64,000 nt of DNA, taken from assembly GCA_025352695.1 (NCBI GenBank), contig JANXSK010000144.1, forward strand, positions 1 through 64,000, in the 5' to 3' direction. Positions 26,989 through 49,165 of this stretch are shown here, one piece after another (the first letter of the stretch is position 1; each line of letters starts with the position of its first letter). The position numbers and the translations under genes were made by a program. The stretch is from Ferruginibacter sp. (lineage in GTDB: Bacteria > Bacteroidota > Bacteroidia > Chitinophagales > Chitinophagaceae). Under the pieces are notes generated by a model. It was not told the DNA's origin, did not search any database, and saw only the letters and a list, made by a program, of their open reading frames with translations.

Positions 26989-29900
26989 ATGAAGAATTAC
27001 CAATTTTTTGGTGTGATTAAATATGCAATCACAGGATTTATCCTGGGGATACTGCTCATAATTATTGGGGTGCTGTTAAATTATAATAGCGGTTTCCATG
27101 GAGCATGGTTTCATATTTTTGATTACGCTCCAGACTTTGTGATCATTGCTTTTTCCCCTATTTTTTTAAGTTTACTTTTTTATCTTTTTGGTTTTCGACG
27201 AGAACAATACGAAATATCTACTCAACAAATAAAATCCAGTTTATTTAATGAACAAAAAATTAATTCAGTTTCTGACCAGCAATTAAAAGTACTGGCTAAA
27301 GTTGTTGCTCAGGTAAATGAAGCAATTATTATTACAGATTGCAATGGAAAAGTGGAATGGATAAATGAAGGCTTTACAAAAATTAATGGGTTTATACTGG
27401 AAGAGGTAAAAGGAAAGGAATTAAACAATGTCATATATGGTTCAATAACAAATAAAGAAGTTATAAAGCGTATAGCTGAAAAATTGATTATTGGAGAGTC
27501 TGTAATGGAGGAATTACAAACCTATAACAAGAATGGTACTCCAATCTGGCTATCTTTAAGTATCAAGCCAATTTTTGATGATACCGGGGAAATTGTAAAT
27601 TTTATTTCCATTCAAAATAATATTACAAGTCGTAAGGGCAAAGAAATTTCTATTGAAGCATTGTATAAGGAGGTAGCGAATTATAAATTTGCACTGGATC
27701 AATCTGCCATTGTAATGATATTTAATATACATGGAAAAATTATTCATATTAATAGAAAATTTTGTGAAATAAATGAATTGGCAGAAGATGAGTTATTAGG
27801 AAATGATTACAGGTCTATTAGCATTAGTATGAGAGATAAAAGTATTGTAAACCCAATCTGGAAAGCATTACAGGAAGGCAATACATGGAAGGGAGAATTG
27901 GTTAACCGTAATAAAAATGGTAAATTATACTGGGCAGATACAACGATTGTTCCACTGATAGATGCAGCGGGTATGCCTTACCAGTTTCTTGCAATACAGC
28001 ATGATATTACTGAAAGGAAAGAATTGGAAATTCAGTTGATTGCTAATAAAAATAAATTACACCAGGCCATGCAAATTGCACAACTTGGCTCATGGGAGTT
28101 ATATGCTGATGGAAAATTTATTTTATCTACCGAATTAAGACAACTTTATCATTTTCCTTTGGAGGGTGATATTTTAATTGATGAATTCTTCAATAATATT
28201 CATACCCAAGATGTAGATATTGTTAAAGAAAAGATTGCCTTAAGTCAAAATAGTCTTCAATTAGAAGAAGTTGAGTATCGTTATTATATTAATGGAGTGT
28301 TGCATTATATAATTTCAAATATTTATCCTCATCTGGATGTTACAGGTAATTGCATAGGCGCATTTGGAACAGTACAGGATAATACTGCTGCAAAATTATC
28401 AGCGCTTGCTTTAAAGAAAAGTGAAACAGAAAAATCAGTTATTTTAAATAATACCCAAACAGTTATTTGTTTGCATGATATGAATGGTGTTATAATTGAT
28501 ATAAATAATACCGCAGAAAGAATGAGTGGTTTTAGTAAAAACGAGATCATTGGACTTAGTTTAAAATTGATTATTTCTCCCGAATATACAACCGAATTTG
28601 ATGAATATATTCACACCATCAATAACAATCCGACAGCTAACGGCATTTTTAATATTTATACTAAAAACGGAAACAAAAAGGTATGGCTGTATCAAAATAC
28701 AGTGTATGCAAATGAAGGCAATCAGCCCTATGTAATTGCTAGTGCTATTGATATTACAGAATCTGTAAAAGCACAAAATGAAGTAGAGCGACAACAGCAG
28801 TTTATTCGCCAGATTATAAACAATAGCCCAAGTGTAATTTTTATGATCAATGCACAAAGGCAGATTATGCTTGCTAATAAAACTTTTGCAAACTATTATC
28901 CTTACAATGAAAAGGAAACTCCATTTGCTAAAAAATTATCGCATGGTGCAGAGGATATTTTTTTTGGTGATATGGATAGCCTTTTTGAAATGGAAGACGG
29001 ACAAATGATTACGCTGGAAGGAAGTTTGAACAATCCGGCAACAGATACCTCCTGCTGGTTTAACATCATAAATAAATGTTTTAAAGAAAAAAATGGCGAA
29101 AAATATATTCTGGGCTTTGGTATGGATATTACTGGAAGGCACCAGGTAGAAACAGATTTGATTGCAGCAAATGAAATGGTTAAAAAAACTTTAAAAGTTA
29201 AGGATGCTTTTATTAGCAATATGAGCCATGAAATAAGAACGCCATTGAATGCCGTAATTGGATTTACGGATTTACTTTTAGAAACCAGCTTAAATAGTAA
29301 ACAAGCAGCATATGTTGATATTGTAAAAACAGCTTCTGGAAACCTGTTAGCACTTATCAATAATATTCTTGTTTTTACTAAAATTGAATCCAGTAATCTT
29401 GTATTAGAAAGTCATCCCATGAGTATTATAAAAATAATCAATGATGTAATAAAAATACTTGAACCCCAGGCTACGGTTAAGGGGATATCAGTAACTAAGA
29501 TGCTTGATGATACGCTTCCACCTATTGTATTAGGTGATCCTTTACGTTTATCACAGGTATTATTTAACATAATTGAAAATGCAGTAAAATTTACAGATAC
29601 CGGCACTATTGATATTACCTGTAAGCTGGTAAATGAAGCCGATAAACTAAAGGATCATATTGCTTTTTCAATAAGAGATTCGGGTATTGGTGTAGCAAAT
29701 GAAAAGCAAACGGATATTTTTGAACGCTTTACACAGGGTAATCAGGATACCCAACTTTTGTATGGTGCTTTAGGTTTAGAATTAAGTATTGCTAAGCGTA
29801 TTGTTGAGCTTTATGGAGGTACTTTTACAATCGAAATCGACCTTGATAAAGGTACTACTTTTAATTTTATGCTTCCTTTTAATAAGTGTATTGATACACC

Positions 29901-30366
29901 GTATCTTAATGAGTTAAAATCTGTAAATGGGGAGCGTATATTATCTATTAATAAAGCAATTCGTATTTTACTTGTAGAAGATAACAGCATCAATGCAATG
30001 TTAGCCACACAGGTATTAACAAAAAGGGGATTTACATTGGTACATGTTTTAAACGGACAACTTGCGGTAGAAGCAGTACAACAACAGTACTTTGATTTGA
30101 TATTGATGGATATTCAGATGCCTGTGATGGATGGCATTGAAGCAACAAAAACTATCCGTCAATTAAATGGTACTGTAGCAAATATTCCAATTATTGCTAT
30201 GACAGCTCATTCATTGCATGGCAAAATGCAGCATTGTTATAATACAGGTATGAATGGTTATGTGGCCAAACCTTTTAAGGCTAGAGATTTATTTAATTCA
30301 ATTAGTGAAGTAATAAAAAGCAGTAGCTACAACAATGCTGAATTGAGTAGCCCAATAATAGTTTAA
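26989..30366 (+). CDS. Membrane-anchored multi-PAS hybrid sensor histidine kinase / response regulator
   Basis: Two N-terminal TM segments, repeated PAS/PAC segments (WINEGFTKINGF; ITERKE), HisKA MSHEIRTPLNAVIGF, HATPase N-box, C-terminal REC (ILLVEDNSINAML...LILMDIQMPVMDG...AKPF). Confidence 0.94.
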   Translation: MKNYQFFGVIKYAITGFILGILLIIIGVLLNYNSGFHGAWFHIFDYAPDFVIIAFSPIFLSLLFYLFGFRREQYEISTQQIKSSLFNEQKINSVSDQQLKVLAKVVAQVNEAIIITDCNGKVEWINEGFTKINGFILEEVKGKELNNVIYGSITNKEVIKRIAEKLIIGESVMEELQTYNKNGTPIWLSLSIKPIFDDTGEIVNFISIQNNITSRKGKEISIEALYKEVANYKFALDQSAIVMIFNIHGKIIHINRKFCEINELAEDELLGNDYRSISISMRDKSIVNPIWKALQEGNTWKGELVNRNKNGKLYWADTTIVPLIDAAGMPYQFLAIQHDITERKELEIQLIANKNKLHQAMQIAQLGSWELYADGKFILSTELRQLYHFPLEGDILIDEFFNNIHTQDVDIVKEKIALSQNSLQLEEVEYRYYINGVLHYIISNIYPHLDVTGNCIGAFGTVQDNTAAKLSALALKKSETEKSVILNNTQTVICLHDMNGVIIDINNTAERMSGFSKNEIIGLSLKLIISPEYTTEFDEYIHTINNNPTANGIFNIYTKNGNKKVWLYQNTVYANEGNQPYVIASAIDITESVKAQNEVERQQQFIRQIINNSPSVIFMINAQRQIMLANKTFANYYPYNEKETPFAKKLSHGAEDIFFGDMDSLFEMEDGQMITLEGSLNNPATDTSCWFNIINKCFKEKNGEKYILGFGMDITGRHQVETDLIAANEMVKKTLKVKDAFISNMSHEIRTPLNAVIGFTDLLLETSLNSKQAAYVDIVKTASGNLLALINNILVFTKIESSNLVLESHPMSIIKIINDVIKILEPQATVKGISVTKMLDDTLPPIVLGDPLRLSQVLFNIIENAVKFTDTGTIDITCKLVNEADKLKDHIAFSIRDSGIGVANEKQTDIFERFTQGNQDTQLLYGALGLELSIAKRIVELYGGTFTIEIDLDKGTTFNFMLPFNKCIDTPYLNELKSVNGERILSINKAIRILLVEDNSINAMLATQVLTKRGFTLVHVLNGQLAVEAVQQQYFDLILMDIQMPVMDGIEATKTIRQLNGTVANIPIIAMTAHSLHGKMQHCYNTGMNGYVAKPFKARDLFNSISEVIKSSSYNNAELSSPIIV

Positions 30367-30781: not shown

Positions 30782-33466
30782 TTAAATATTACCGGTGTAG
30801 GGCAAAGGTATTTCAACTATAATTTCGCAACCATTACCTGGTGAGGACTGCAAAGAAAAAAGACCAGAAATTAACTCAGTTCGTTTTTTTATATTGTTAA
30901 GGCCGATACCTTTTTTAAAATTTTTAGTATCAAAGCCTACACCATTATCAAAGATTCTAAAATGAATTACCTGATTTACCAATGAAAGAGATATTTCTAT
31001 TAAAGTAGCTTTCGAATATTTCATAATATTATTTAATTGCTCCTGTAATATCCTGTATAAATTTAGTTGGATGTCATCATCAATTTTAATTTCTTTTACT
31101 CCTTCCATTTTAAATTTTATTTGGTACTGATTATTAATGTTTATACTTTTTATAAGTTCTTTAAAAACCTCTTCTAATGAATTTTCTTCGAAGGAAGCAG
31201 GTGCCAACCGATGCGATAGATTCCGTATTTCATTTATAGCCATGTGAACATAGGTTAATGATTTCTCTATCCATTCATTTTGTGTTGTTAGGGACTTTCC
31301 TTTTGTCATACCAAGGTTTAGTAATACACCGGCTAAAATCTGATTTACGTTGTCATGTAATTCTCCTCCAATCTGAAACCGCTCCTGCTCCTGTGCATTA
31401 ATTATGGCTTTTGTTATTTCTTGATCTAACTTTTTACTGGCTGTTACATCTCTTTGTATAGCTATCCAATGGGTATAAATACCTCTCTCATCAGCTACAG
31501 GGCTTAAAGACATATTATTTAAGAATTCTTCTCCATTTTTTTTATAGTTGATTATGGTAATTTCTTTGGTTTCATATTTTTTTATTGACTCATTTAAAAG
31601 CTTTATTTCTTTTTTGTCAGATTTTAGCCCTTGTAATATTTTAGGCGTTTTGCCAATTACTTCCTTAGAAGTATAACCTGTCATTTTAGTAAATGCTTCG
31701 TTAACATATACAATTTTAGGACCGGATAGATCAAATGATTCTGCCTCAGTAATCATTACAGAATCGGATGTATTGGTAATAACTGACTCCAGTAATTTTA
31801 GCCTGTGCTCTTCTTCTTTTTGATGTGTAATATCCTGCATTGCACCTATCATTTTTATAGGTTTATTATTATTATCTACTAATATAAAACCCCTGTCGAA
31901 AATATATTTATAAATTCCATCGGCGCATTTAAAACGATATTCATCCTGCCATTTAAGAATTTTATTATCAATATTGAGCTGAATATTTTCACAAACTCTT
32001 TTTAAATCATCTGGATGAATTTTTAGTCTCCACCAATCACTGTAAGTAGTATTATTTAATTCTTCATATCCAAAAACGCCCTTTAAACCTTTATTCCAAA
32101 GTGTGACATCCGTTATTAAATCCCAATCCCATATTACATCACTAGTTGCTTTTGCAACAATATTATACCTGTCATTCGATTTTTTGATATCTTCAGCTGC
32201 ATTCCGGTTTTCTATCAATATCCCTACCAATCCAGCTGCACGTTCGAGCAAATTTATCTGATTGGGTAGTGGAGTTTTATTGGTTTTAAAATAACTTGAA
32301 AAGCTGCCAATAATCATACCATCTCTTTGCTTTATGGGCACAGACCAACATGCCTTAAATCCAAAAGGGCGAATAAATGATCGGTAGTCATTCCATAGAG
32401 GATCAGTATTTATATCAGTTACAAAAATATTGGTTCCAGTATAAATGGCTGTTCCGCAAGATCCAGCATTGGGACCTATTGATAATCCTTCAATTAATTT
32501 CAGGTACTCTTTTGGCATAGATCCAGATACAAGAGACCGAATGGTATTTATTTCATCTTTTTGTAAAATAGTACAAAAAGATTGTGGCATTATCTGTTCT
32601 ATATTTATAATAAGAATGTTTAATAATTCGCTAAACGAAGTGCCAGCTGTTGCATTTAATGCATACACTTCCTTTTCCATAGCCAATATTTTTTTTTGAT
32701 AATTACTTTGTGTAACATCATTGCTTAATACCATTTTGGCTTTTTTTTCACCAAAATTAATTTCGCTGCCATAAATTTCTACATCTATTAGTTCGCCATT
32801 TTTTTTTAAGTGCCTGTAATTTTCTTTTTTATCAGTGGTTTTATTGATAATGTCTGTAGTGGTTTCTTTTAATTTAGCTCCATCTGCTAAAGGCCTTATA
32901 TGGTATAAGGTCATAGATAGAAATTCATCTTCTGAATAACCATAATGAGCAATTGCCGCTTCATTTACTTTTAAAAATTGCAAGCTTTCCAAATCATAAA
33001 CCCACATTGGTATTGGGCTTAAACTAAAAAGATTTCTATATTTTTCTTCCGACTCCTTTAACTCATTACTTATGCGGCTTCTTTCGCCACTATAGGTTAT
33101 ACTTTTATAGAGTTGGGCTGCAGTTAGTTCATCTTTTAATAAATAATCTGAAACGCCTAAGGCAAGTGTTTTAATTCCAAACTTTTTATCGCCATAGTCT
33201 GTAAGTACAATAATTGGGCAATGTCCGGCCAGTTGTACCATTTCAGTTACTAATAATTCGCCGCTTGCATCTGGCAGAGAAAGATCGAGCAGGATTATAT
33301 CAAAATTATTATCATGTTCTAATTTATTTTTTGCCTCAACAAAAGTTTTAGCATGCTCAATTAAAGGGTTTAAAAATTCTTCTTTTAAATATTCTTTAAT
33401 CAAAACGATATCACCAGGATTGTCTTCAACAACAAGAATATGCTTTGTATGACTGCGATATGACAT
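30782..33466 (-). CDS. REC-PAS-GAF-PAS-PAS sensor histidine kinase (HisKA_3 type)
   Basis: N-terminal REC (HILVVEDNPGDIVLIKEYL...ILLDLSLPDASG), PAS, GAF-like segment, HisKA_3 GGELHDNVNQILAGVLLNLGM, HATPase DNGVGFD...GIGLNNIKKR. Confidence 0.92.
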   Translation of the reverse strand: MSYRSHTKHILVVEDNPGDIVLIKEYLKEEFLNPLIEHAKTFVEAKNKLEHDNNFDIILLDLSLPDASGELLVTEMVQLAGHCPIIVLTDYGDKKFGIKTLALGVSDYLLKDELTAAQLYKSITYSGERSRISNELKESEEKYRNLFSLSPIPMWVYDLESLQFLKVNEAAIAHYGYSEDEFLSMTLYHIRPLADGAKLKETTTDIINKTTDKKENYRHLKKNGELIDVEIYGSEINFGEKKAKMVLSNDVTQSNYQKKILAMEKEVYALNATAGTSFSELLNILIINIEQIMPQSFCTILQKDEINTIRSLVSGSMPKEYLKLIEGLSIGPNAGSCGTAIYTGTNIFVTDINTDPLWNDYRSFIRPFGFKACWSVPIKQRDGMIIGSFSSYFKTNKTPLPNQINLLERAAGLVGILIENRNAAEDIKKSNDRYNIVAKATSDVIWDWDLITDVTLWNKGLKGVFGYEELNNTTYSDWWRLKIHPDDLKRVCENIQLNIDNKILKWQDEYRFKCADGIYKYIFDRGFILVDNNNKPIKMIGAMQDITHQKEEEHRLKLLESVITNTSDSVMITEAESFDLSGPKIVYVNEAFTKMTGYTSKEVIGKTPKILQGLKSDKKEIKLLNESIKKYETKEITIINYKKNGEEFLNNMSLSPVADERGIYTHWIAIQRDVTASKKLDQEITKAIINAQEQERFQIGGELHDNVNQILAGVLLNLGMTKGKSLTTQNEWIEKSLTYVHMAINEIRNLSHRLAPASFEENSLEEVFKELIKSININNQYQIKFKMEGVKEIKIDDDIQLNLYRILQEQLNNIMKYSKATLIEISLSLVNQVIHFRIFDNGVGFDTKNFKKGIGLNNIKKRTELISGLFSLQSSPGNGCEIIVEIPLPYTGNI

Positions 33467-33938: not shown

Positions 33939-36900
33939 TTATTTAACCACCAACTTATTATTCATTAATTTTTCGGAAACCAATAATTTTTTAGAAATGG
34001 TAAAATAAAAAGTACTTCCTTTTTCAGGTATTGATTCTACCCAAATTTTTCCATGATGATTATCAATAATCTTCTTACATATAGCTAATCCTATGCCAGT
34101 TCCCGAGTATTCATCTTTACTGTGCAATCTTTGAAATATTACAAAAACTTTGTTGAAATATTCCCGATCTATCCCAATGCCATTGTCTGTTACAGCAAAT
34201 TGCCAATGTGCTGCTTTATCTGTTACACTGATTTTTATATTAGGAATACTGTCTGGCTGCTGGTATTTAATTGCATTGCTGATAAGGTTTTGAAATAACT
34301 GCTGAATAGGTATTTTGGCTGCAATTATATCAGGTATTGATTCGTACGAAATGAATATTTTTTTTTCGGTGATAATATTTATATACATGCTGAATGCCTC
34401 TTTTAATATTTCAGATATATTTATTTTTTCGAACAGATATTGTTGTCTGCCAACTCGTGAATACTCCAGTAAATCAAGTATAATTCTGCGCATCCGAACT
34501 GCTCCATCTACAGCAAAACGAATATATATTTGTCCGGCTTCATCAAGTTGAGGTTCGTACTTTTTTTGTATTTGAGTTAAAAAACTTGTTACCATTCTTA
34601 AAGGTTCCTGTAAATCATGGGAGGCTATATAGGCAAATTGTTCTAATTCTGCATTCGAAGTAGCAAGTTCTTCTGCTCTTTTATTTAACTGTATGTTTAG
34701 TTCTTTTAAAACAATTTCCTTTTGTATCCTCTCTGTAATATCCTGCATAGCTCCAATTATCCTGTAAGGAATTCCTTTTTCATCTCTTACAACAATCCCG
34801 CTATCGGCAACTGTTGTGTAGTTACCATCAAATTTTCTAAACCTGTATTGGCCCTTCCAATAAATTTCAGTAGGATCATTTATTATTTTCTGAATACTTT
34901 GTTTAATTTTTCTGCTATCCTCAGGATGAATAAAAGCTTCCCACAAGTCTACACCAGGTTTGCTCTCTCTCATTTTATAGCCAAATAACGTGTTGAATCC
35001 CTCGCCCCAATAAATAGTATTGCTAATTAAATCAAAATCCCAAATGGCATCAGAAGTTGCTTTGGTAGCATACTCAAACCGTTCGATGCTTTTGGCTAGC
35101 GCCTGCTGGCTTTGCATAATTTCAGTAATATCATTCGATACAATCATTACTGCATTTTTATTATTGTATACAATGGTATGGCCTGTAATGGTTACATTAA
35201 TTTTTGTACTGTTTTTTTTAATATGCTTCCACTGCCCTAAATTAAGCATTCCATAATTTTTTATGTTTTTATTTACTCTAATAATATCTGCAATTTCTTC
35301 CAGTACAAATATGTCGTTGATAGACATATTTAAAAACTCCTTTTTAGTATAGCCATAATGTGTAATGGCGGAGTCATTTACTTCCAATATTTTTAAGCTT
35401 TCCAAATCGTAAATCCAATTAGCAAGGGGGTTACTGTTAAAGATCATCTTGTATTTTTCTTCCGATTCTTTAACTGCTTTTTCTGCTTTTTTTCTAAAAG
35501 TAATATCCTGCGAAGTTCCTTCCAATAAAATAGGTATTCCTTGTTCATCATAAACCAGATTACCTTTTTGTACCAATACTCTTAGTGAACCATCTTTTAA
35601 AACAATTCGGTGTTCATAATTATAGGGTTGTTTTTCTTCAATGGCAAGTTTATACTCTTGTAATACAAATTGTTTATCATCTTCATAAATAACATCATGT
35701 ATTTGTTGAATTTGTATCGGCAAATTGGTTTTTGTAAATCCATAAATATGGTACAATTCATCTGAAAAGAAAACAGTATTGTTTTGAAGGTTAATTTCCC
35801 AATACCCTAATCCTGCAATTTGCTGCGCAGTTTCCAGTTTTTTGTTGATAGTAATCAGCTGATTTTGATATAATTTATTTTCAGTTATATCTCTACTGTA
35901 GCAGGCTATTCCAGATATTTCAAGTCCATTAAAAATTGGCTTAAAGCTAACTTCTTTCCATTGCTGGTTGTTAGTAAAAGGATCTCTTGAAATAATTTCT
36001 TTTTTAAAAACTTCGCCAGAAAGAGCTCTGTAATACATCTCGTGCCAGAAAAGAAGTACTTCGGTAGAATAAGTACCTTCTATTAATAAGTAATCTCCCT
36101 GCTTAATTATTTTACCATTTAAAATTTTTATACAATTTATAAATGCTTTATTACCTGCAATAAAATTAAATTCTTTACTAACGCTCCATATCTGATCATC
36201 TGTGGTATTAATAAGGGCTTCTTTATCCCTTTTTTCAAATTCTTTTTGGCTCTCTGCTTTTATTTTTTCTGTTACATCATTCATTAAACTAAGTACACAT
36301 TTTCTTTCTTGATACTCAATTATATTACCTGTAGCATTGATGTACATTAATTCGCCATTCTTTTTTTTATGTATCCAGATTCTATAAGCAACATTGTCAA
36401 AAGTATTTTCATCCTTCAGCATTTCATAAATTGAAGAACTTTCCGAAAGGGCTCGTAAATCTTTTAAAGTAAATAACAAAAATTCATTTCGCCTATAGCC
36501 ATATTTTTTTAATGCTGCTTCATTAACTTCAATAATTTGATGCGTTAAAAAATCAAAAATAAATAAGGGTAGGGGGTTATTATTAAAGAGGTTACGGTAA
36601 AGTTGTTCTGATAATCCCAAAGCTTTCTCCTGCATTTTTGTTTCTGTACCATCTCTTGCAATACAGTGCAAGATTTTGGTATTTTCATCCCAACGAGCCG
36701 ACCATATTACAGGTATAATACTACCATCTTTTCGGGAATACCTGTTTTCAAAATTCCTGGTAGGTCCATTTTTTATAATATCCTCTATCTTTTTGAGCGA
36801 TGAAATTTTATCTTCCTTAAATACTATATCCATAAATGGTTTGCCAATTAACTCTTCAGCTTCAAATCCCCATAAATCTTTACAGGCTTTACTAACCTGT

Positions 36901-39032
36901 AAGAAATTACCTTCCCTGTCAAATTCACAAATCACATCTAAGGAGCAATCGAGAATTCTTTGCCTATCGGCAAGTGTTTTATTCAATAAAATATTGTCTT
37001 TTTTTTCTTGGGTAACATCGTTGGCTATGCAATACACTCCTGTAATACGGTTATTAATAATTATAGGAAGATTGATTAGTAAAACAAAAAACAGCGTTCC
37101 GTTGGGAGTAATAATTCTAATTTCATATTCCTGAGTAATACCTAGTTTAGTATTTTCAAAGTGTTGGTTTGTTTTATTAAGGTCGTCCGGGTGAACAAAT
37201 ACGGAGTAGTGCATTTTAAGTAATTCTGCTTCACTGCATCCGGACTTTAAGGAAAGTATATTATTTGTACTCGTTAAATTACCTTCCAAATCTAAAGAAA
37301 AAACGGCAGCAGGATTTTGGTAAAATAAAGATTGGTATATCTCTTTGTTGACTGCCAATTCCTGTTCTAATTTTTTAGTTGCTGTTATATCCTGTATTAC
37401 ACCTATAAAGGTTTCAACTTTACCATCGGCATCATATTTTGCTGAACCGTAAGCTTTTATATTCCTTACTTCGCCATCACAAGCCCTTATAATTCTTGTT
37501 TCAATTTGTTGGGCTTCTATTTTATTGCTTAGCCCATTTTGTAACCATTTTAAATAAGGTTTTTTTTCATCCGGATGAAGAAATTGCAATATACCATCAG
37601 CTGTAGGAGAAATTATGCCAGGTACTAAACCAACAATATTATAAAATTGATCTGACCATATACGTTTGTTGGTAGTTAGGTTTATTTCAGTACTTCCAAT
37701 ACCAGCAATCTTTTCTGCATTGTTTAACAGCAACTGTGCTTGAACAATTTTTTTTTCAATTTCTTTTTGTTCTGTGATATCTTTTATTACACCTAGCAGT
37801 TTTGTAGGTACGCCGGTTTCATCATACCCTACCTGTGCATATGCAATAATATTTCTTTCAATTCCATCTGCCCTTATTATTCTTGTTTCTGATTGGCAAA
37901 ATGGTATTTTGTCAATCAGTTTTTTATTTAGAGTATCTAAATAATATTCCTTGTCTTCAGGATGAAGAAATTGAATAAATGCATCTCTCGAAGCTTCAAT
38001 AAAGCCTGGTTCAAGTCCCAGAATTCTATAAAATTCATCCGACCAACTACGCTTATTATTTAAGTAATCAATTTCAATACTTCCAATATGGGTAATATTT
38101 TCTCCTCTCTTTAATAAACTTTCTATTTGTTCAATTTTAAGATCCTTCTTTTTTCTTTCTGTAATATCTCTACCAGTAATACATACGGCATCAATTTTTC
38201 CATCTACCTGCACTGGGTTGATGGAAAAACTCAACCACAAAGGTTCACTAGTTTCAATGTGTGTTGCTATCCGTTCATAGTTTGTTGATTCTCCATTTAG
38301 TGCTTTATTGATAACAGTTTTAAAAAATTCCTTCAGGTAAGGTTCAATAAAGGTTAGTAAATTATCACCTGCCTGAAATGTATTCAACATAAATTTATTC
38401 TGTCTTCCAGTTATGTTGCAGGTTTTTACAATAAAATTGTTATCTATTAATACAAAGCCTTCATCAGTATTATCAAATATGGCCTTAAGATTTTCTTCGG
38501 ATTGTCTTGTCTTTTCAGTTGCTGCTATTTTTTCGCTAATATCTATTACAGTAATTATTTTGTATTCTTTTCCATTTGTATGGAGTAATGTTTTTATACC
38601 TGTTGTTACATATAAAATTGAACCGTCTTTATGTGTGACTTGCCATTCGGGTTGCTTGGATGTAAATTTAATTGTACTGTTATTATCTATTTGTGGTGCT
38701 GTTATTGGCGATGCTATGGATAATAGCATATCGCAATTGTTGCCCACTAACTCTTCTTTAGCATAACCATATATTTTGCAGCATGCTTCGTTTATATCAA
38801 TAATATTTTGAGCTTCGTCTTTAATATATATGCCAGCATCAATAAGATTAAAAAGCTCACCTAAAATTGGTTCCGTAGTATAAATATTGTTTTTGCTAGA
38901 TGGAATGCCTGACATGGCTGTGTTTTTATTTTTAGCAGCAATACTTTTTTTTTCTTTTTTAATTTTATTTTCATGCTGAACTGACATAGAAGCAGGCAAA
39001 ACCTGGTTCGTTTTGTCATATTTTTTTTTCAT
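33939..39032 (-). CDS. Giant cytoplasmic multi-PAS sensor histidine kinase (1697 aa)
   Basis: About 11 PAS-like segments, then phytochrome-type HisKA (ELEQFAYIASHDLQEPLRMV) and HATPase_c (NLISNAIKYQ, VTDNGIGID, GTGIGLAICKKIIDNHHGKIWVES). No REC domain seen. Confidence 0.93.
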   Translation of the reverse strand: MKKKYDKTNQVLPASMSVQHENKIKKEKKSIAAKNKNTAMSGIPSSKNNIYTTEPILGELFNLIDAGIYIKDEAQNIIDINEACCKIYGYAKEELVGNNCDMLLSIASPITAPQIDNNSTIKFTSKQPEWQVTHKDGSILYVTTGIKTLLHTNGKEYKIITVIDISEKIAATEKTRQSEENLKAIFDNTDEGFVLIDNNFIVKTCNITGRQNKFMLNTFQAGDNLLTFIEPYLKEFFKTVINKALNGESTNYERIATHIETSEPLWLSFSINPVQVDGKIDAVCITGRDITERKKKDLKIEQIESLLKRGENITHIGSIEIDYLNNKRSWSDEFYRILGLEPGFIEASRDAFIQFLHPEDKEYYLDTLNKKLIDKIPFCQSETRIIRADGIERNIIAYAQVGYDETGVPTKLLGVIKDITEQKEIEKKIVQAQLLLNNAEKIAGIGSTEINLTTNKRIWSDQFYNIVGLVPGIISPTADGILQFLHPDEKKPYLKWLQNGLSNKIEAQQIETRIIRACDGEVRNIKAYGSAKYDADGKVETFIGVIQDITATKKLEQELAVNKEIYQSLFYQNPAAVFSLDLEGNLTSTNNILSLKSGCSEAELLKMHYSVFVHPDDLNKTNQHFENTKLGITQEYEIRIITPNGTLFFVLLINLPIIINNRITGVYCIANDVTQEKKDNILLNKTLADRQRILDCSLDVICEFDREGNFLQVSKACKDLWGFEAEELIGKPFMDIVFKEDKISSLKKIEDIIKNGPTRNFENRYSRKDGSIIPVIWSARWDENTKILHCIARDGTETKMQEKALGLSEQLYRNLFNNNPLPLFIFDFLTHQIIEVNEAALKKYGYRRNEFLLFTLKDLRALSESSSIYEMLKDENTFDNVAYRIWIHKKKNGELMYINATGNIIEYQERKCVLSLMNDVTEKIKAESQKEFEKRDKEALINTTDDQIWSVSKEFNFIAGNKAFINCIKILNGKIIKQGDYLLIEGTYSTEVLLFWHEMYYRALSGEVFKKEIISRDPFTNNQQWKEVSFKPIFNGLEISGIACYSRDITENKLYQNQLITINKKLETAQQIAGLGYWEINLQNNTVFFSDELYHIYGFTKTNLPIQIQQIHDVIYEDDKQFVLQEYKLAIEEKQPYNYEHRIVLKDGSLRVLVQKGNLVYDEQGIPILLEGTSQDITFRKKAEKAVKESEEKYKMIFNSNPLANWIYDLESLKILEVNDSAITHYGYTKKEFLNMSINDIFVLEEIADIIRVNKNIKNYGMLNLGQWKHIKKNSTKINVTITGHTIVYNNKNAVMIVSNDITEIMQSQQALAKSIERFEYATKATSDAIWDFDLISNTIYWGEGFNTLFGYKMRESKPGVDLWEAFIHPEDSRKIKQSIQKIINDPTEIYWKGQYRFRKFDGNYTTVADSGIVVRDEKGIPYRIIGAMQDITERIQKEIVLKELNIQLNKRAEELATSNAELEQFAYIASHDLQEPLRMVTSFLTQIQKKYEPQLDEAGQIYIRFAVDGAVRMRRIILDLLEYSRVGRQQYLFEKINISEILKEAFSMYINIITEKKIFISYESIPDIIAAKIPIQQLFQNLISNAIKYQQPDSIPNIKISVTDKAAHWQFAVTDNGIGIDREYFNKVFVIFQRLHSKDEYSGTGIGLAICKKIIDNHHGKIWVESIPEKGSTFYFTISKKLLVSEKLMNNKLVVK

Positions 39033-39538: not shown

Positions 39539-39634
39539 CAATGTTGTTAATATAGTTAATATTTATTTTGCATTAAAAATATTTTTAGGGTAGATTTATT
39601 ATAACTTTATTTGTATCCAAATTATAAGTGCCAT

Positions 39635-40261
39635 ATGAAAAAATTTTTATTAGTAGATGATCATAATGTAGTTCGTTCAGGTATTATGGGTTTACTACTT
39701 GAATTATTTAAGCCATCAGAAATAGATGAAGCAAGTGATGGTAACTCTGCAACTGAAATTTTAAAGCACAATCATTACGATCTTATTATGATGGATATTC
39801 AAATGCCTAAAACAGATACTTTGGGGCTTATGGAATATATCCACATCAAATATCCGGATGCTAAAGTATTAATATTTTCTATGAGTGCAGAAGGCATTTA
39901 TGCAAAAAGATTTTTAAAGGCAGGCGCAAAAGGGTTTCTTTCAAAAGATGCTCCGCTTGAAGAAATTAAAAAAGCGATTAATCTTGTTTTAAATAACCGA
40001 AAATATATTAGCGAAGCACTTGCATCTACGCTTGCAGAAGAATCTATTTCAGAAACTTCAGGCAACCCGTTTAATCAGCTTTCACCAAGGGAATTTGAGA
40101 TTGTATCTTTACTTTTATCTGGTCAAACGATTAGTGAAATTTCAAAATTATTAAACTTGCAGGTTTCTACAATTGGTACACATAAGGCTAGACTTTTTTC
40201 TAAATTAAATGTAAATAACATTTTGGAACTTAAAGAAATTGCCACCTCTTATAATCTTTAA
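39635..40261 (+). CDS. NarL/FixJ (LuxR-type) response regulator
   Basis: KKFLLVDDHNVVRSGI...LIMMDIQMPK...KGFLSKDAP; HTH LSPREFEIVSLLLSGQTISEISKLLNLQVSTIGTHKARLFSKL. Start moved to ATG 39635. Confidence 0.94.
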   Translation: MKKFLLVDDHNVVRSGIMGLLLELFKPSEIDEASDGNSATEILKHNHYDLIMMDIQMPKTDTLGLMEYIHIKYPDAKVLIFSMSAEGIYAKRFLKAGAKGFLSKDAPLEEIKKAINLVLNNRKYISEALASTLAEESISETSGNPFNQLSPREFEIVSLLLSGQTISEISKLLNLQVSTIGTHKARLFSKLNVNNILELKEIATSYNL

Positions 40262-44103: not shown

Positions 44104-44185
44104 TTTTTAGTGGTGCAAAACTACCTGAAAATTTATTAATGGAAAATTGGTAATTGAAATTTATTTTTGCGGTTCAAATATTTTT

Positions 44186-45367
44186 ATGAGTCTTTATAGT
44201 AAAAGAGGGGTTAGTGCCCAAAAGGAAGAAGTACATGCTGCTACCAAACACCTCGACCAGGGATTGTTTCCCAATGCCTTTTGTAAAATTTATCCTGATT
44301 ATTTAGGAGGAGATGATGATTATGTGAGTGTAATGCATGCCGACGGAGCCGGCACTAAAAGCATATTGGCTTATTTATATTGGAAAGAAACAGGTGATAT
44401 TTCTGTTTGGAAAGGGATTGCTCAGGATGCGATTGTAATGAATTTAGATGACCTGTTGTGTGTAGGCGTGTATGATAACATTGTATTTAATTCAACTATC
44501 GACCGCAATAAAACCATCATTCCCGGCGAAGTATTGTTTCAAATAATCAATGGCTCTCAGCAACTGTTTGATGAATTAAAAAAGGTTGGTGTACACATTC
44601 ATTACCTGGGTGGCGAAACGGCTGATGTGGGCGACGTGGTGCGTACTATTGCAGTTAACGGCACCATGACCTGCCGCTTTCCTAAAAGCAAAGTGATCAG
44701 CAATGATAAAATTAAGGCAGGTGATGTAATTGTTGGCCTTGCCAGTTACGGACAATCAACCTACGAAAGTGAATACAACAGTGGTATAGGAAGCAATGGT
44801 TTAACCAGTGCAAGGCATGATGTGTTGAACAAATATTATGCAGATAATTTTAAAGAAAGTTATAACACGGGCCTGGATGAAGAAGTGGTGTACATTGGAA
44901 AACATAAACTATCTGATGTCATTACTTTCATCGTTGATAATGCACCCTTTACCACTTCTATTGGTAAACTGATTTTATCACCCACAAGAACTTATGCACC
45001 GGTATTAAAAATATTGCTGGAGAATGCGTTTGATAAAATTCATGGCCTGATACATTGCAGTGGTGGCGGACAAACAAAATGTATGAAATACCTGCCCGGT
45101 AATTTCAAGATCATAAAAGATAATTTGTTTGAAGCACCTGAAATTTTTAAAATCATTAAAGAGAGTAGTGGTAGTAATAATAAAGAAATGTACGAGGTGT
45201 TTAACATGGGTTGCAGGCTGGAAATTTATTGTTCCCCGGAAGATGCCGGCACAATGATAACTACTGCTAACACCTTTAATATTGATGCACAAATCATCGG
45301 CAGGGTAGAAGCGAATGATAAAAAAGAACTGGTGATTAAATTGAAGGATGAAGAGATTGTTTATTAA
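44186..45367 (+). CDS. purM: AIR synthase-related protein (phosphoribosylformylglycinamidine cyclo-ligase, Bacteroidota form)
   Basis: HADGAGTKSILAYLYWKETGD, DLLCVGVYDNIVFNSTIDRNK, GGETADVGDVVRTIAV, LIHCSGGGQTKCMKYLP, NMGCRLEIY. Start moved to ATG 44186. Confidence 0.88.
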   Translation: MSLYSKRGVSAQKEEVHAATKHLDQGLFPNAFCKIYPDYLGGDDDYVSVMHADGAGTKSILAYLYWKETGDISVWKGIAQDAIVMNLDDLLCVGVYDNIVFNSTIDRNKTIIPGEVLFQIINGSQQLFDELKKVGVHIHYLGGETADVGDVVRTIAVNGTMTCRFPKSKVISNDKIKAGDVIVGLASYGQSTYESEYNSGIGSNGLTSARHDVLNKYYADNFKESYNTGLDEEVVYIGKHKLSDVITFIVDNAPFTTSIGKLILSPTRTYAPVLKILLENAFDKIHGLIHCSGGGQTKCMKYLPGNFKIIKDNLFEAPEIFKIIKESSGSNNKEMYEVFNMGCRLEIYCSPEDAGTMITTANTFNIDAQIIGRVEANDKKELVIKLKDEEIVY

Positions 45368-45420
45368 TGCAAAGCAAAAAGTTTACGCCTTTTTAAAAGG
45401 TGTAAACTTTTTGCTTTGCA
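45368..45420. terminator. Long bidirectional terminator hairpin between convergent genes
   Basis: TGCAAAGCAAAAAGTTTACGCCTTT-TTA-AAAGGTGTAAACTTTTTGCTTTGCA: 25-bp stem with a single G-T wobble and a 3-nt loop. Confidence 0.9.
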
Positions 45421-45435
45421 AACGATGGCATATTT

Positions 45436-47640
45436 TTATTTATGTTCTTCAACTACAAAAGTAAGAGGTTGTTCTTTAAAGGCTGTAACATTATGCCCAT
45501 TTTGAAGAGCAGGTACCCACTTAGGTCCTTTTTTTATTAACGCCACGGCTGCTGAATCCATGCCATATCCATGTTTTGTTTCTGCCTTTACCTCGCTAAT
45601 GCTTCCATCTTTATTTACAATAAATTTTACAATTACTTTATAGATACCTCCAGGCGCACCTTTATTAAAAGGAATACTTGGGTTTAGATTTCTTTCAAGA
45701 TAACCCTTCCACGCAGACTCACCACCGGGAAATTTTGGTTCGTTTTCGACCTGGGTAAAAATTTTATCATCTTGTTTTGGATCAAGCCCTATTGTTTGTG
45801 CACTTGTTTTATTTTTAGCCGCTGCATCTGATACCGCAGGCTGCTTCGCTATTTCACCTGTGGCAACAACCTCTTCTATTGAGCCATATTTTCCTTGTTC
45901 GCCAAATTTTTTGATAGCTTCTTTCTTTTCTAGTATGGTTACATTAATGCGCTTGTCCGTTTGAAAGACAAATTTTTCTTCTAATAATTTATCTACTTTG
46001 TCTGAGGCTATTTTTCCATTGCCAATAACTTTCCCATCAAGTACATAGAGAATGTTTTCTGGCAGCTGATTTTTTTCTTCCTTCGGATTAATTGAAGAAT
46101 TCCCCGGAATTGTATCAACTTCAGCAGGGCTAAGAGAAGTTTTATTTAATGCTATATTATTTTGATTAGCATATTTTTCAATGGCTGCCAATACATTTTT
46201 CGCAATCGTTTCTTTTGCTTCATCCGTTTGCAGGTAGGCCAAATCTTTTTTGTTGGTAATATAACCTGCTTCAATTAAGATGGCTGGGCAAGGACTTTCT
46301 TTTAAGATCCAAATACGTTTATGTCGTTGTCTCGGTAGCATCGTAACAGGAATTTTGTAATTATTTGAGAATTCATTAATTACCGCAGAAGCAAATAATT
46401 TACTATTGTTGGTATTTGTGTTTATTTCGTTGTAAACGAATACACTCATGCCTGTTTTTATTGCAGCTGAATCTCTTGATATTCCGTCAACATGGATTGA
46501 AACAAATAGGTCTGGATTTTGCGCTTTGCTAAAATCAGCTTTTTCTTTGGGGCTTTGATAAATATCATTTTCTCTTGTTAGTATGATATTGATTTTATCA
46601 TTGCTATTCATCGATTTTATCTTTTGACTAATTGAAAGTGCAAGGTCTTTTTCAGTAAAACTGCCATCAAGACTCACTGCCCCAAAGTCTTTACCACCAT
46701 GGCCTGCATCCAGCACAACCGTTATTTTTTTACCATGATAAACCGGTGTGTGGGCGATAGTTTTTGTTTTTAAAGTAAAGGCTGCAAAGAGTAATACAGC
46801 CAGGGGCAATACAAGCACACGGCCAATATAGCTAGCTTTTGGGGTTTTGTTTTTTGTTAACATGAGTAATCTTCGTTTGATAGGTGAATAAAAAAATGGA
46901 TTGGTTAAAGCAAACTGGTGTTGCGGATAAGTGGCTTGTAATATCATGGCGGCAAAAGCTTCCGTATCGCTATCTTCTACGGCAATTTTATCGGCCATAA
47001 ATTCATGAATCATATTTAGCTCTTTACGTATCAGCCAAAAGAATGGATTGCACCAATAAAAGATAAGTACTGCATTGATGAATAATTTATCGTAACTGTG
47101 TTTTTGGTGCACATGTGCCAGCTCATGTTTAAAAATCTGCTTCCCGGTGGCAGTAGAAATATCTATGTGATCATTCCAGAAAATATATTGTAAAAAGGAA
47201 AAGGGTGTTCCTTTTGCTGTGGTATTTACAAAATAAATACTATCTATAACTGTTTGTCTGTGCTGTTTTAAGAGGGTACGAATTTTTAGAAACACCTGAA
47301 CAAACAAGCTAAAAAAAATAGCGCTGGTGAAACAATACAATAACGAAACAAGCTGTTCAGCACTAAAATTATTTCTTTGGGAAGTCAAGACAATTTCATC
47401 CAGGTAATCATTGCTGCCGCTTACCACTTGTAAAAGCTTAATGGTTTGTGCAGGTGCATTTGCGGTATGCCATATATTTATTTGTATCAATGGCATTACC
47501 AATGAAAGTACCACTGTTGCCAGCAAATAAAACCGGTTGTAGCGATGGTATATTTTATTGCGGAGCAGCAACCAATAATAGCCAAAAAAAGTGCCGGAGC
47601 AAATAATTACTTTAAGCAGGTAATAAGCGTATGGGAGCAT
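45436..47640 (-). CDS. M56 (BlaR1-like) metallopeptidase fused to N-acetylmuramoyl-L-alanine amidase and TonB C-terminal domain
   Basis: M56: FKHELAHVHQKHSYDKLF, CNPFFWLIRKELNMIHEFMAD. Amidase_3: VVLDAGHGGKDFGAV, LFVSIHVDG, AILIEAGYITN. TonB_C: FPGGESAWKGYLERNLN...GGIYKVIVKFIVNKDGSISEVKAE. Confidence 0.92.
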   Translation of the reverse strand: MLPYAYYLLKVIICSGTFFGYYWLLLRNKIYHRYNRFYLLATVVLSLVMPLIQINIWHTANAPAQTIKLLQVVSGSNDYLDEIVLTSQRNNFSAEQLVSLLYCFTSAIFFSLFVQVFLKIRTLLKQHRQTVIDSIYFVNTTAKGTPFSFLQYIFWNDHIDISTATGKQIFKHELAHVHQKHSYDKLFINAVLIFYWCNPFFWLIRKELNMIHEFMADKIAVEDSDTEAFAAMILQATYPQHQFALTNPFFYSPIKRRLLMLTKNKTPKASYIGRVLVLPLAVLLFAAFTLKTKTIAHTPVYHGKKITVVLDAGHGGKDFGAVSLDGSFTEKDLALSISQKIKSMNSNDKINIILTRENDIYQSPKEKADFSKAQNPDLFVSIHVDGISRDSAAIKTGMSVFVYNEINTNTNNSKLFASAVINEFSNNYKIPVTMLPRQRHKRIWILKESPCPAILIEAGYITNKKDLAYLQTDEAKETIAKNVLAAIEKYANQNNIALNKTSLSPAEVDTIPGNSSINPKEEKNQLPENILYVLDGKVIGNGKIASDKVDKLLEEKFVFQTDKRINVTILEKKEAIKKFGEQGKYGSIEEVVATGEIAKQPAVSDAAAKNKTSAQTIGLDPKQDDKIFTQVENEPKFPGGESAWKGYLERNLNPSIPFNKGAPGGIYKVIVKFIVNKDGSISEVKAETKHGYGMDSAAVALIKKGPKWVPALQNGHNVTAFKEQPLTFVVEEHK

Positions 47641-47740: not shown

Positions 47741-48100
47741 TTATTTATTCTTCTTCAATTGTTTTAGCAATAATTCAAGTTCATCAATGCTTAAATTATT
47801 TTCCTTTACCATAAAAGAAACGGCGCTGCTGAAGTTGCCTTCAAAATAGCCTTTCACCAAGCTTTTCATGCTGTTTTTGCTGTACACATCTTTACCTACC
47901 AACGGGTAATACTGGTGCATGCGGCCAAATACTTTCAGCCCTACAAATTCTTTTTCCGTCAGGATTTTTATGATGGTGGCTACTGTGTTGTTGTGTGGTT
48001 TAGGGTTGGGTAGTTCATCAATGATCTCTTTTAAAAATGCTTTGTCAAGTTTCCAGATCACCTGCATTATTTGTTCTTCTGCCCTGGTTAATATTTTCAT
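47741..48100 (-). CDS. BlaI/MecI-family transcriptional repressor
   Basis: LTRAEEQIMQVIWKLDKAFLKEIIDELPNPKPHNNTVATIIKILTEKEFVGLKVFGRMHQYYPLV. Confidence 0.95.
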   Translation of the reverse strand: MKILTRAEEQIMQVIWKLDKAFLKEIIDELPNPKPHNNTVATIIKILTEKEFVGLKVFGRMHQYYPLVGKDVYSKNSMKSLVKGYFEGNFSSAVSFMVKENNLSIDELELLLKQLKKNK

Positions 48101-48397
48101 ACAAAATAGTTTTTGCTTTGCAGAAACAAACCTATAACTAATATTTTAGTTTTACAACTATTTTTTTAGTTATCAACCAGATTTAACATTTGCCGGTAAA
48201 AATTAATTTTTATTGCAGACTTTCATTAGGTTAAATTTGCAGTGCCAGAAAATATTTTTTAGAAAAGGTCTTTAAGTAATTATGGTAAGAAGACAGCGTG
48301 AATAGCATTGATTGTTTTATGATGATTATATTATTGCATTGGTAGCAGCATGAAAGATTCTGTGTGCGGGGTGATAAAAGTTTCACAATGCTGAAAA

Positions 48398-48478: not shown

Positions 48479-49165
48479 ATGTCTCAGGGATTAATAGAAT
48501 TAAAAAATGCAAATATTTACCAGGGTAGTAACCTTATTTTAAGTGAAGTAAACATTTCTGTAGATAAAGGCGAGTTTGTTTACCTGGTAGGTAAAACAGG
48601 AACAGGTAAAAGCAGTTTATTAAAAACATTGTATGGCGATCTTGACCTTACTGAAGGCGAGGGTTGGGTTGTGGGATATAACCTTCGTGCGCTTGACTGG
48701 AAAAAAGTTCCTTTTCTCCGTCGTAATCTTGGTGTGGTGTTTCAGGATTTTCAATTACTTACAGACAGGAATGTAAATAATAATTTGAAATTTGTTTTAA
48801 AAGCCACCGGCTGGAAAGACGAAAAACTAATGGATGAGAAAATTAATGATGTGCTGGATAAAGTGGGGCTGAAAACAAAGGGTTTTAAAATGCCTTTTGA
48901 ATTGAGTGGAGGAGAGCAACAACGTATTGATGTGGCAAGAGCGCTGTTAAATTCGCCAAAATTAATTTTGGCAGATGAACCTACTGGCAACCTTGATCCT
49001 GAAACAAGTGATGAAGTTATGCAGTTGTTGTTCAGTATCAGCAAAGACTATGGAACAGCTATTGTAATGGCCACACACGATTACATGGTGATTAATAAAT
49101 TTCCTGCTAGAACTATTAAAACCGAAAGCGGCAAGGTTTGGGACAATGCAAGCATCTCTATGTAA
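48479..49165 (+). CDS. ftsE: FtsE-like ABC transporter ATP-binding protein
   Basis: YLVGKTGTGKSSLLKTLYGD, LSGGEQQRIDVARALLNSPKLILADEPTGNLDPETSDEVM. Confidence 0.88.
   Translation: MSQGLIELKNANIYQGSNLILSEVNISVDKGEFVYLVGKTGTGKSSLLKTLYGDLDLTEGEGWVVGYNLRALDWKKVPFLRRNLGVVFQDFQLLTDRNVNNNLKFVLKATGWKDEKLMDEKINDVLDKVGLKTKGFKMPFELSGGEQQRIDVARALLNSPKLILADEPTGNLDPETSDEVMQLLFSISKDYGTAIVMATHDYMVINKFPARTIKTESGKVWDNASISM

What the first reader, a model, noticed from the sequence alone, without database searches (positions are those of the whole stretch)
45436..47640. M56 peptidase - muramoyl-amidase - TonB triple fusion next to BlaI
One 734-aa protein combines a BlaR1-like membrane metallopeptidase (HELAH), a complete-looking amidase_3 domain with its zinc-site motifs, a plug-like segment (ITILEKKEAIKKFGEQGKYGSIEEVV type) and a TonB C-terminal domain, and it neighbours a BlaI repressor. 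M56-TonB fusions are known in Bacteroidota, but an inserted catalytic amidase would let one protein both remodel peptidoglycan and signal cell-wall state to the repressor.
Basis: partly seen in the sequence, partly recalled or inferred. Interest (0 to 1): 0.7.

Follow-up and report, generated by a model that had tools for sequence, protein, structure and literature searches.

The report
BlaR1-like sensor carrying cell-wall amidase
A Chitinophagaceae bacterium (and many of its relatives) makes a membrane protein that joins the cytoplasmic protease of the antibiotic sensor BlaR1 to an apparently intact cell-wall-cutting enzyme outside the membrane, in a two-gene operon with the repressor BlaI and its own conserved operator, so cell-wall cutting and cell-wall signalling are probably one self-regulated circuit.

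Summary
ORF 45436-47640(-), 734 aa, is a BlaR1-type M56 membrane protease, a full Amidase_3 domain and a TonB_C domain in one chain, with blaI (47741-48100) just upstream. Motifs and predicted topology match BlaR1 (HExxH...ExxxD, same 41-residue spacing); the amidase follows TM4, where BlaR1 carries its penicillin sensor, and so is predicted periplasmic. The architecture is not unique: M56-amidase fusions occur in 41 of 149 other sampled genomes of the family and a few other Bacteroidota. Zinc triad intact in 51/51, catalytic Glu in 48/51; all lack the AmiA/B/C blocking-helix insert. All 35 loci read in context have blaI directly upstream. New here: a conserved tandem operator (two AACTA-N6-TAGTT dyads, 20 bp apart) over the predicted promoter; 38 of 100 genomes have it, exactly once each (control 0), and 29 of 30 sites read belong to blaI operons. 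At this locus within one genus, amidase and TonB part are each present or absent. Best reading: a self-regulated BlaI/M56 envelope circuit with an amidase as exchangeable periplasmic module. Whether the amidase senses, cuts or both is untested. I found no published description.

The parts
45436..47640 (-). 734-aa M56 - Amidase_3 - plug-like - TonB_C fusion protein
46771..47640 (-). BlaR1-like membrane protease part, residues 1-290: TM1 8-26, TM2 39-57, TM3 100-118, re-entrant/hydrophobic 186-204, TM4 272-290
   Evidence: Pfam M56, PDB BlaR1 8exp matches profile 166-291, hydropathy and positive-inside
47113..47127 (-). HELAH (172-176) zinc protease motif
   Evidence: invariant H172/E173/H176 in 29 relatives
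46990..47004 (-). E213xxxD217, third zinc ligand motif, 41 residues after H172 as in BlaR1 (H201/E242)
   Evidence: invariant; BlaR1 numbering from PMC9834060
46165..46728 (-). Amidase_3 domain (residues 305-492), periplasmic side by predicted topology
   Evidence: Pfam 1e-40, PDB amidases, Foldseek TMt 0.84 to 4rn7/1jwq
46699..46701 (-). H314 zinc ligand codon
   Evidence: 51/51
46651..46653 (-). E330 zinc ligand codon
   Evidence: 51/51
46492..46494 (-). H383 zinc ligand codon
   Evidence: 51/51
46270..46272 (-). E457 catalytic Glu codon
   Evidence: 48/51; Q, D, S in L007, L033, L117
45766..46023 (-). plug-like segment (about residues 540-625)
   Evidence: family profile vs SusC; Pfam Plug in 12/29 relatives, not in this protein
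45454..45639 (-). TonB_C domain (668-729)
47741..48100 (-). blaI-like repressor (Penicillinase_R), first gene of the operon
48136..48151 (-). operator dyad 2, AACTAAAATATTAGTT
48156..48171 (-). operator dyad 1, AACTAAAAAAATAGTT; 20 bp from dyad 2
   Evidence: exactly one tandem site in this genome
48127..48134 (-). predicted Bacteroidota -7 element TAGGTTTG (TAnnTTTG), 20 nt after TTG at 48155-48157; the operator covers the spacer between them
   Evidence: consensus from own knowledge
45368..45420 (.). bidirectional terminator-like hairpin between the convergent fusion and AIR-synthase genes; probably ends the operon
   Evidence: fold z = -9.8
48479..49165 (+). divergent FtsE-like ATPase gene, part of the conserved neighbourhood
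   Evidence: TIGR02673 FtsE 2.9e-68, 229.7 bits but below its 264.85-bit cut-off; synteny
44147..45367 (+). convergent PurM-like (AIR synthase) gene, syntenic marker

Best explanation
A two-gene, self-regulated BlaI/BlaR1-type signalling operon. SHOWN by sequence: BlaI-family repressor plus membrane M56 protease in one predicted operon; a dedicated tandem operator over the operon's own predicted promoter and (at this stringency) nowhere else in the genome; a complete zinc amidase, predicted periplasmic, in the place of BlaR1's penicillin sensor; further exchangeable envelope modules (plug-like, TonB_C, GldM) behind it. INFERRED: in the resting state BlaI represses blaI and the fusion. When the periplasmic part meets altered peptidoglycan (substrate or fragments in the amidase cleft and/or a pull or contact through the TonB_C/plug tail), the change passes through TM4 to the cytoplasmic M56 site, which cleaves BlaI. 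The operon is then derepressed, and the only product besides BlaI is more of the amidase-bearing receptor, so sensor and output are the same protein and the response is local peptidoglycan trimming or remodelling.
For: Domains and motifs. BlaR1 structure: Nout-Cout, H201ExxH/E242xxxD, cytosolic protease, C-terminal sensor outside (PMC9834060); here H172/E213 have the same 41-residue spacing, hydropathy gives TM1-TM4 with the same topology, and the amidase starts about 15 residues after TM4. Zinc triad 51/51, catalytic Glu 48/51. blaI directly upstream in 33/35 loci with gaps from -29 to 111 bp, mostly under 12 bp; the other two also have blaI there, hidden by an antisense ORF. Next gene convergent in 29/35, terminator-like hairpin after the fusion. 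Operator: at least one dyad in 35/38 upstream regions against at most 2 in shuffles, two dyads at 20 bp in 25/38 against 0; 38/100 genomes each with exactly one tandem site, reversed control 0; 29 of 30 sites read belong to blaI operons.
Against: Orthologues without amidase keep blaI and operator (L118 and L121 at the same syntenic locus, also L120), so the circuit does not need the amidase; others end after the amidase without TonB_C (L013/L092, L023/L101), so it does not need TonB either. Catalytic Glu is lost in 3/51 including the closest relative. In G014 a free membrane-anchored amidase sits upstream of blaI without the operator. No direct evidence of ligand, BlaI cleavage, or amidase activity. 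A short linker holds the amidase near the inner membrane, which may limit access to the sacculus.
Confidence: 0.45

Rival explanations
1. The amidase is only the regulated effector: signal input comes from the plug/TonB_C tail or the M56 bundle, and BlaI derepression simply raises the dose of a membrane-anchored amidase.
For: M56-only orthologues keep the circuit; the active site is almost always intact; the operon makes no other product in most loci.
Against: Members that end after the amidase (484-492 aa) have no other periplasmic domain to sense with and still have blaI and, in the family, operator dyads (L101, L092); the amidase is in the position of BlaR1's sensor.
Confidence: 0.27
2. The amidase is only a receptor: a peptidoglycan-binding domain borrowed from an enzyme, as BlaR1's sensor is related to class D beta-lactamases; hydrolysis is incidental.
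For: Position equals BlaR1 sensor; zinc site kept 51/51 while the catalytic Glu is replaced by Q, D or S in three, including the closest relative.
Against: 48/51 keep the full catalytic set; no AmiC-like blocking-helix insert, so the site looks open.
Confidence: 0.2
3. A mosaic Bacteroidota M56 envelope protein in which periplasmic domains drift in and out with little functional meaning.
For: Strong modularity at one locus in one genus; the fused/unfused label needs 8 changes on the M56 tree, at least 4 forced by well-supported branches.
Against: Active-site conservation across deep divergence, essentially one amidase clade in the family, constant spacing of about 38-49 residues from the M56 match to the amidase match in most members.
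Confidence: 0.08

Closest known systems
BlaR1/MecR1 - BlaI/MecI (Staphylococcus, Bacillus licheniformis)
   Same: M56 gluzincin in a four-TM bundle with the same motifs and predicted topology, partner BlaI-family repressor, dyad operators at the promoter
   Different: Periplasmic part is a zinc amidase (plus plug/TonB_C) instead of a penicillin-binding sensor; no beta-lactamase or PBP gene in the operon; operator is AACTA-N6-TAGTT in tandem and found only at its own operon
Bacteroidota M56-TonB_C proteins with BlaI (for example L118, L121, L123)
   Same: Same M56 part, same blaI neighbour; in L118 and L121 same operator and locus
   Different: Lack the amidase; carry plug-like, GldM_3rd or TonB_C modules only
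Amidase_3 enzymes CwlV, CwlD, Nostoc AmiC2, and E. coli AmiA/B/C
   Same: Fold, three zinc ligands and catalytic Glu; compact form as in CwlV (1jwq) and Nostoc AmiC2 (5emi)
   Different: Fused behind a BlaR1-like protease; lacks the AmiA/B/C-type regulatory insert (H-to-E spacing 74 against 134-158 in AmiC-type amidases of the family)
FtsEX-EnvC-AmiA/B
   Same: An FtsE-like gene is the divergent neighbour in many genomes, and in two genomes a MacB/FtsX-like permease stands between operator and blaI
   Different: The FtsE gene also sits beside amidase-less orthologues and with purM, ribF and holA, so the link is probably positional; the amidase has no interaction-helix insert

Membership tests
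BlaR1/MecR1 receptor | HExxH...ExxxD gluzincin motifs in M56 | tested here: met
   H172ExxH, E213xxxD, invariant in 29; 41-residue spacing as in BlaR1
BlaR1/MecR1 receptor | Four-TM, Nout-Cout topology with re-entrant segment and periplasmic C-terminal domain | tested here: met
   Hydropathy and positive-inside only, supported by alignment to 8exp
BlaR1/MecR1 receptor | C-terminal penicillin-binding (SxxK) sensor domain | tested here: not met
   Pfam finds Amidase_3 and TonB_C, no transpeptidase or beta-lactamase domain
BlaR1/MecR1 receptor | Adjacent BlaI-family repressor in the same operon | tested here: met
   35/35 loci
BlaR1/MecR1 receptor | Controls a beta-lactamase or resistant PBP | tested here: not met
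   Operon is blaI plus fusion only; the single tandem operator in the genome is its own. Weaker or variant sites not excluded
BlaR1/MecR1 receptor | Proteolytic cleavage of BlaI on induction | not testable with these tools
   A conserved hydrophobic pair (F-M/L in VSFMV) aligns with the N-F pair of MecI, suggestive only
Amidase_3 (PF01520) | Domain above cut-off with complete profile | tested here: met
   140 bits, 1-174/174
Amidase_3 (PF01520) | Zinc ligands H, E, H and catalytic E | tested here: met
   H314, E330, H383, E457
Amidase_3 (PF01520) | N-acetylmuramoyl-L-alanine amidase activity | not testable with these tools
   needs assay
AmiA/AmiB/AmiC division amidases | Regulatory insert with blocking and interaction helices | tested here: not met
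   Spacing H383-E457 is 74; AmiC-type amidases of the family 134-158; insert described in PMC10268282
BlaI/MecI repressors (PF03965) | Penicillinase_R domain and a dyad operator at its own promoter | tested here: met
   binding itself not tested
TonB energy transducer | TonB_C domain | tested here: met
   34.5 bits, cut-off 24.6
TonB energy transducer | Single N-terminal TM anchor acting with ExbB/ExbD | tested here: not met
   N-terminus is the M56 bundle

The most novel reading that the evidence does not exclude
A BlaR1-type receptor whose sensor is a working peptidoglycan amidase: the cell reads its wall by the enzyme's own encounter with substrate, and the response is more of the same enzyme, a closed self-inducing wall-remodelling circuit independent of beta-lactams.
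Probability: 0.33. Interest if true: 0.78.

Novelty: new variant of a known kind. Interest (0 to 1): 0.55.

Why it matters
BlaR1/BlaI is known as an antibiotic-resistance switch, but M56-BlaI pairs without penicillin sensors occur across the Bacteroidota sampled here, and I found nothing on what they sense. Here the sensor position is taken by a defined enzyme family with a known substrate, a candidate operator is defined to the base, and natural variants without amidase, without TonB, or with a replaced catalytic residue exist, some at the same locus. That makes the question of what these systems sense directly testable, and would give a case where a wall hydrolase is tied covalently to the protease that controls its own expression.

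Tried and rejected
Chance or ORF artefact: rejected, recurrent family. Unique fusion: rejected, common in the family. Functional FtsE-amidase link: considered, because FtsEX activates amidases and an FtsE-like gene is divergent in many loci; downgraded, since the same neighbour occurs with amidase-less orthologues and with purM, ribF and holA, i.e. conserved synteny. Amidase replacement in trans: in G265/G317 an AmiC-type amidase gene follows the amidase-less M56 gene, but with terminator-like and promoter-like sequence between and no operator, so not claimed as co-regulated. Anti-phage defence: no PADLOC match for the fusion or BlaI. Wider regulon: single-dyad hits in the genome (12) are fewer than the reversed control (28), so not used. 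AlphaFold model: only 5 sequences could be used; M56 part unusable (pLDDT mostly 30-45), amidase part moderate. Literature searches for the architecture found nothing; the library lacks most subscription journals.

Full report
OBSERVATION. The ORF 45436-47640(-) codes for 734 aa. Pfam gives Peptidase_M56 (167-261), a full-length Amidase_3 (308-489, E 1e-40) and TonB_C (668-729), all over the curated cut-offs; the gene upstream on the same strand, 47741-48100, is Penicillinase_R and aligns along its length with MecI of known structure.

TOPOLOGY AND ACTIVE SITES. S. aureus BlaR1 has an Nout-Cout topology, four TM helices, a re-entrant segment, a cytosolic H201ExxH...E242xxxD site and a C-terminal sensor outside (PMC9834060). 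Here hydrophobic segments lie at 8-26, 39-57, 100-118, 186-204 and 272-290; the loops at 27-38 and 119-271 are rich in K/R, and the loop at 58-99 is poor in K/R. H172ExxH and E213xxxD have the same 41-residue spacing, and they are invariant in 29 relatives. The profile matches BlaR1 8exp residues 196-326. The amidase begins about 15 residues after TM4 and so lies where BlaR1 has its penicillin sensor, on the outer side. The topology is a sequence prediction and was not tested experimentally. A natural variant agrees with it: in G014 a related amidase is a separate protein with a basic N-terminus followed by one hydrophobic segment (L169 7550-8365).

The amidase has H314, E330, H383 and E457. 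In 51 collected M56-amidase fusions the three zinc ligands are kept in all and the Glu in 48. The exceptions are Q in L007, D in L033 (the closest relative, a Ferruginibacter MAG) and S in L117. The distance from H383 to E457 is 65-82 residues in fusions but 134-158 in the AmiC-type amidases of the same family; E. coli AmiA carries its blocking and interaction helices in that interval (PMC10268282). The fused amidase therefore lacks that built-in lock. An AlphaFold model from five sequences is poor for the membrane part, but its amidase part matches compact amidases with TM-scores of about 0.84 by target length.

DISTRIBUTION. The nearest named relative is Ferruginibacter (76% identity), a genus of Chitinophagaceae, so the family coded f1 is most likely Chitinophagaceae. 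My count from the match table (single matches running from the N-terminus through query residue 484 or beyond) is 41 of the 149 other genomes sampled from f1. In the order-level sample, listed matches outside f1 cover only the M56 part. In class- and phylum-level samples, shorter fusions (475-492 aa, no TonB_C) appear in two further families (G531, G724, G957). Only the best two or three candidates per genome were scored in these calls, so rarer fusions may be missed, and nothing outside the phylum was searched.

EVOLUTION. In a tree of amidase domains the f1 fusions form one group (bar the divergent paralogue L117), with one free amidase (G014) inside it, apart from the free AmiC-type and other amidases; the fused/free label needs 3 changes. 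In the M56 tree the label needs 8 changes, of which well-supported branches force at least 4. Both are quick trees, several branches are long, and the root is not inferred, but the amidase-less proteins nest among fusions, which fits several losses better than repeated gains. The locus is conserved: glycosyltransferases, an FtsE-like gene, then divergent blaI-M56, then convergent purM-, ribF- and holA-like genes. Within the window's own genus the same spot carries M56-amidase-TonB_C (window), M56-amidase only (G035, 489 aa), M56-amidase-Plug-GldM_3rd with a sub-threshold TonB_C (G129, 1121 aa) and M56-GldM_3rd-TonB_C without amidase (G349, 804 aa). The periplasmic part is thus a modular cassette on a constant M56 base.

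REGULATION. In 33 of 35 fusion loci read with context, blaI lies directly upstream on the same strand, usually within a few bases; in the other two it is also there, hidden by an antisense ORF in my gene picking. In 29 of 35 the next gene downstream is convergent. In the window, a 53-base inverted repeat at 45368-45420 between the convergent genes folds far better than shuffles (z -9.8). The operon is thus probably blaI plus fusion and nothing else.

Upstream of blaI I found a dyad, AACTA-N6-TAGTT. Of 38 upstream regions, 35 have at least one ACTA-N6-TAGT (shuffles: mean 0.3, maximum 2) and 25 have two spaced exactly 20 bp (shuffles: 0). These 38 include a few amidase-less M56 loci, which have it too. 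In the window the dyads are at 48136-48151 and 48156-48171, over a promoter-like TTG-N20-TAGGTTTG whose -7 element is at 48127-48134 (the Bacteroidota promoter consensus is from my own knowledge). Across 100 genomes of the family the tandem operator occurs in 38, exactly once each, with none for the reversed control. Of 30 such sites read, 28 have blaI within the fetched stretch; one more (G071) lies before a MacB/FtsX-like permease gene that precedes blaI, and one (G029) lies before a thiolase gene (for the G071 locus). Fusions of the other two families lack the tandem form and have ACTACATTTGTAGT-like or related dyads. Differently spaced or weaker operators elsewhere are not excluded: single dyads in the genome are at or below the control level.

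INTERPRETATION. What works like BlaR1 here is the membrane protease with its repressor and operator. What differs is that the sensor is replaced by a wall enzyme, and that the circuit has no separate effector gene at this stringency: the regulated product is the receptor itself. I therefore favour a self-regulated envelope circuit in which the amidase is both input and output, at 0.45. The main alternatives are that the amidase is only the output, with sensing by other parts, or only a receptor. The amidase-less orthologues with the same operator, the TonB-less orthologues, and the three members with a replaced catalytic Glu show that no single periplasmic module is obligatory. That is evidence against any account that makes one module essential, my own included. 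No ligand, BlaI cleavage or enzymatic activity was tested.

NOVELTY. It is not a BlaR1 (no penicillin sensor) and not an AmiA/B/C amidase (no regulatory insert). It is a member of the M56, Amidase_3 and BlaI families in a combination I could not find described (open-access papers only). I rate it a new variant of a known kind.

Noticed in passing
window 26989-30366(+), 30782-33466(-), 33939-39032(-), 39611-40261(+): Three very large PAS-rich histidine kinases (1125, 894 and 1697 aa) next to a LuxR-type response regulator, close to the finding.
   Followed up: partly
L171 138-1637(-) and 1650-2024(-) (own genome, contig C165): A second blaI-M56 pair in the same genome, 499-aa M56 protein without an amidase.
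   Followed up: partly
L169 6687-10660 (G014): Natural split: FtsE-like gene, free membrane-anchored amidase of the fused clade with its own promoter-like sequence, then blaI with three dyads and an amidase-less M56 protein with repeated plug-like segments.
   Followed up: yes
L176 3836-6988 and L175 3915-7077 (G265, G317): An AmiC-type amidase gene sits directly after the amidase-less M56 gene, separated by a terminator-like and promoter-like stretch.
   Followed up: partly
L209 2042-7150, L210 1320-6109 (G071, G144): A 797-aa MacB/FtsX-like permease gene stands between the tandem operator and blaI, so it may be a third member of the operon there.
   Followed up: partly
L207 4540-4840 (G029): The tandem operator sequence also occurs before a thiolase gene in one genome; chance or a second target.
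   Followed up: no
L174 2780-5257 (G075) and L024 1486-3954 (G084): M56 proteins with several TonB_C-like segments in tandem (three matches in G075, two in G084).
   Followed up: no
L105 5788-6237, L084 7028-10393, L118 6910-9324: GldM (gliding/type IX secretion) domains recur as modules in, or in a gene beside, these M56 proteins.
   Followed up: no
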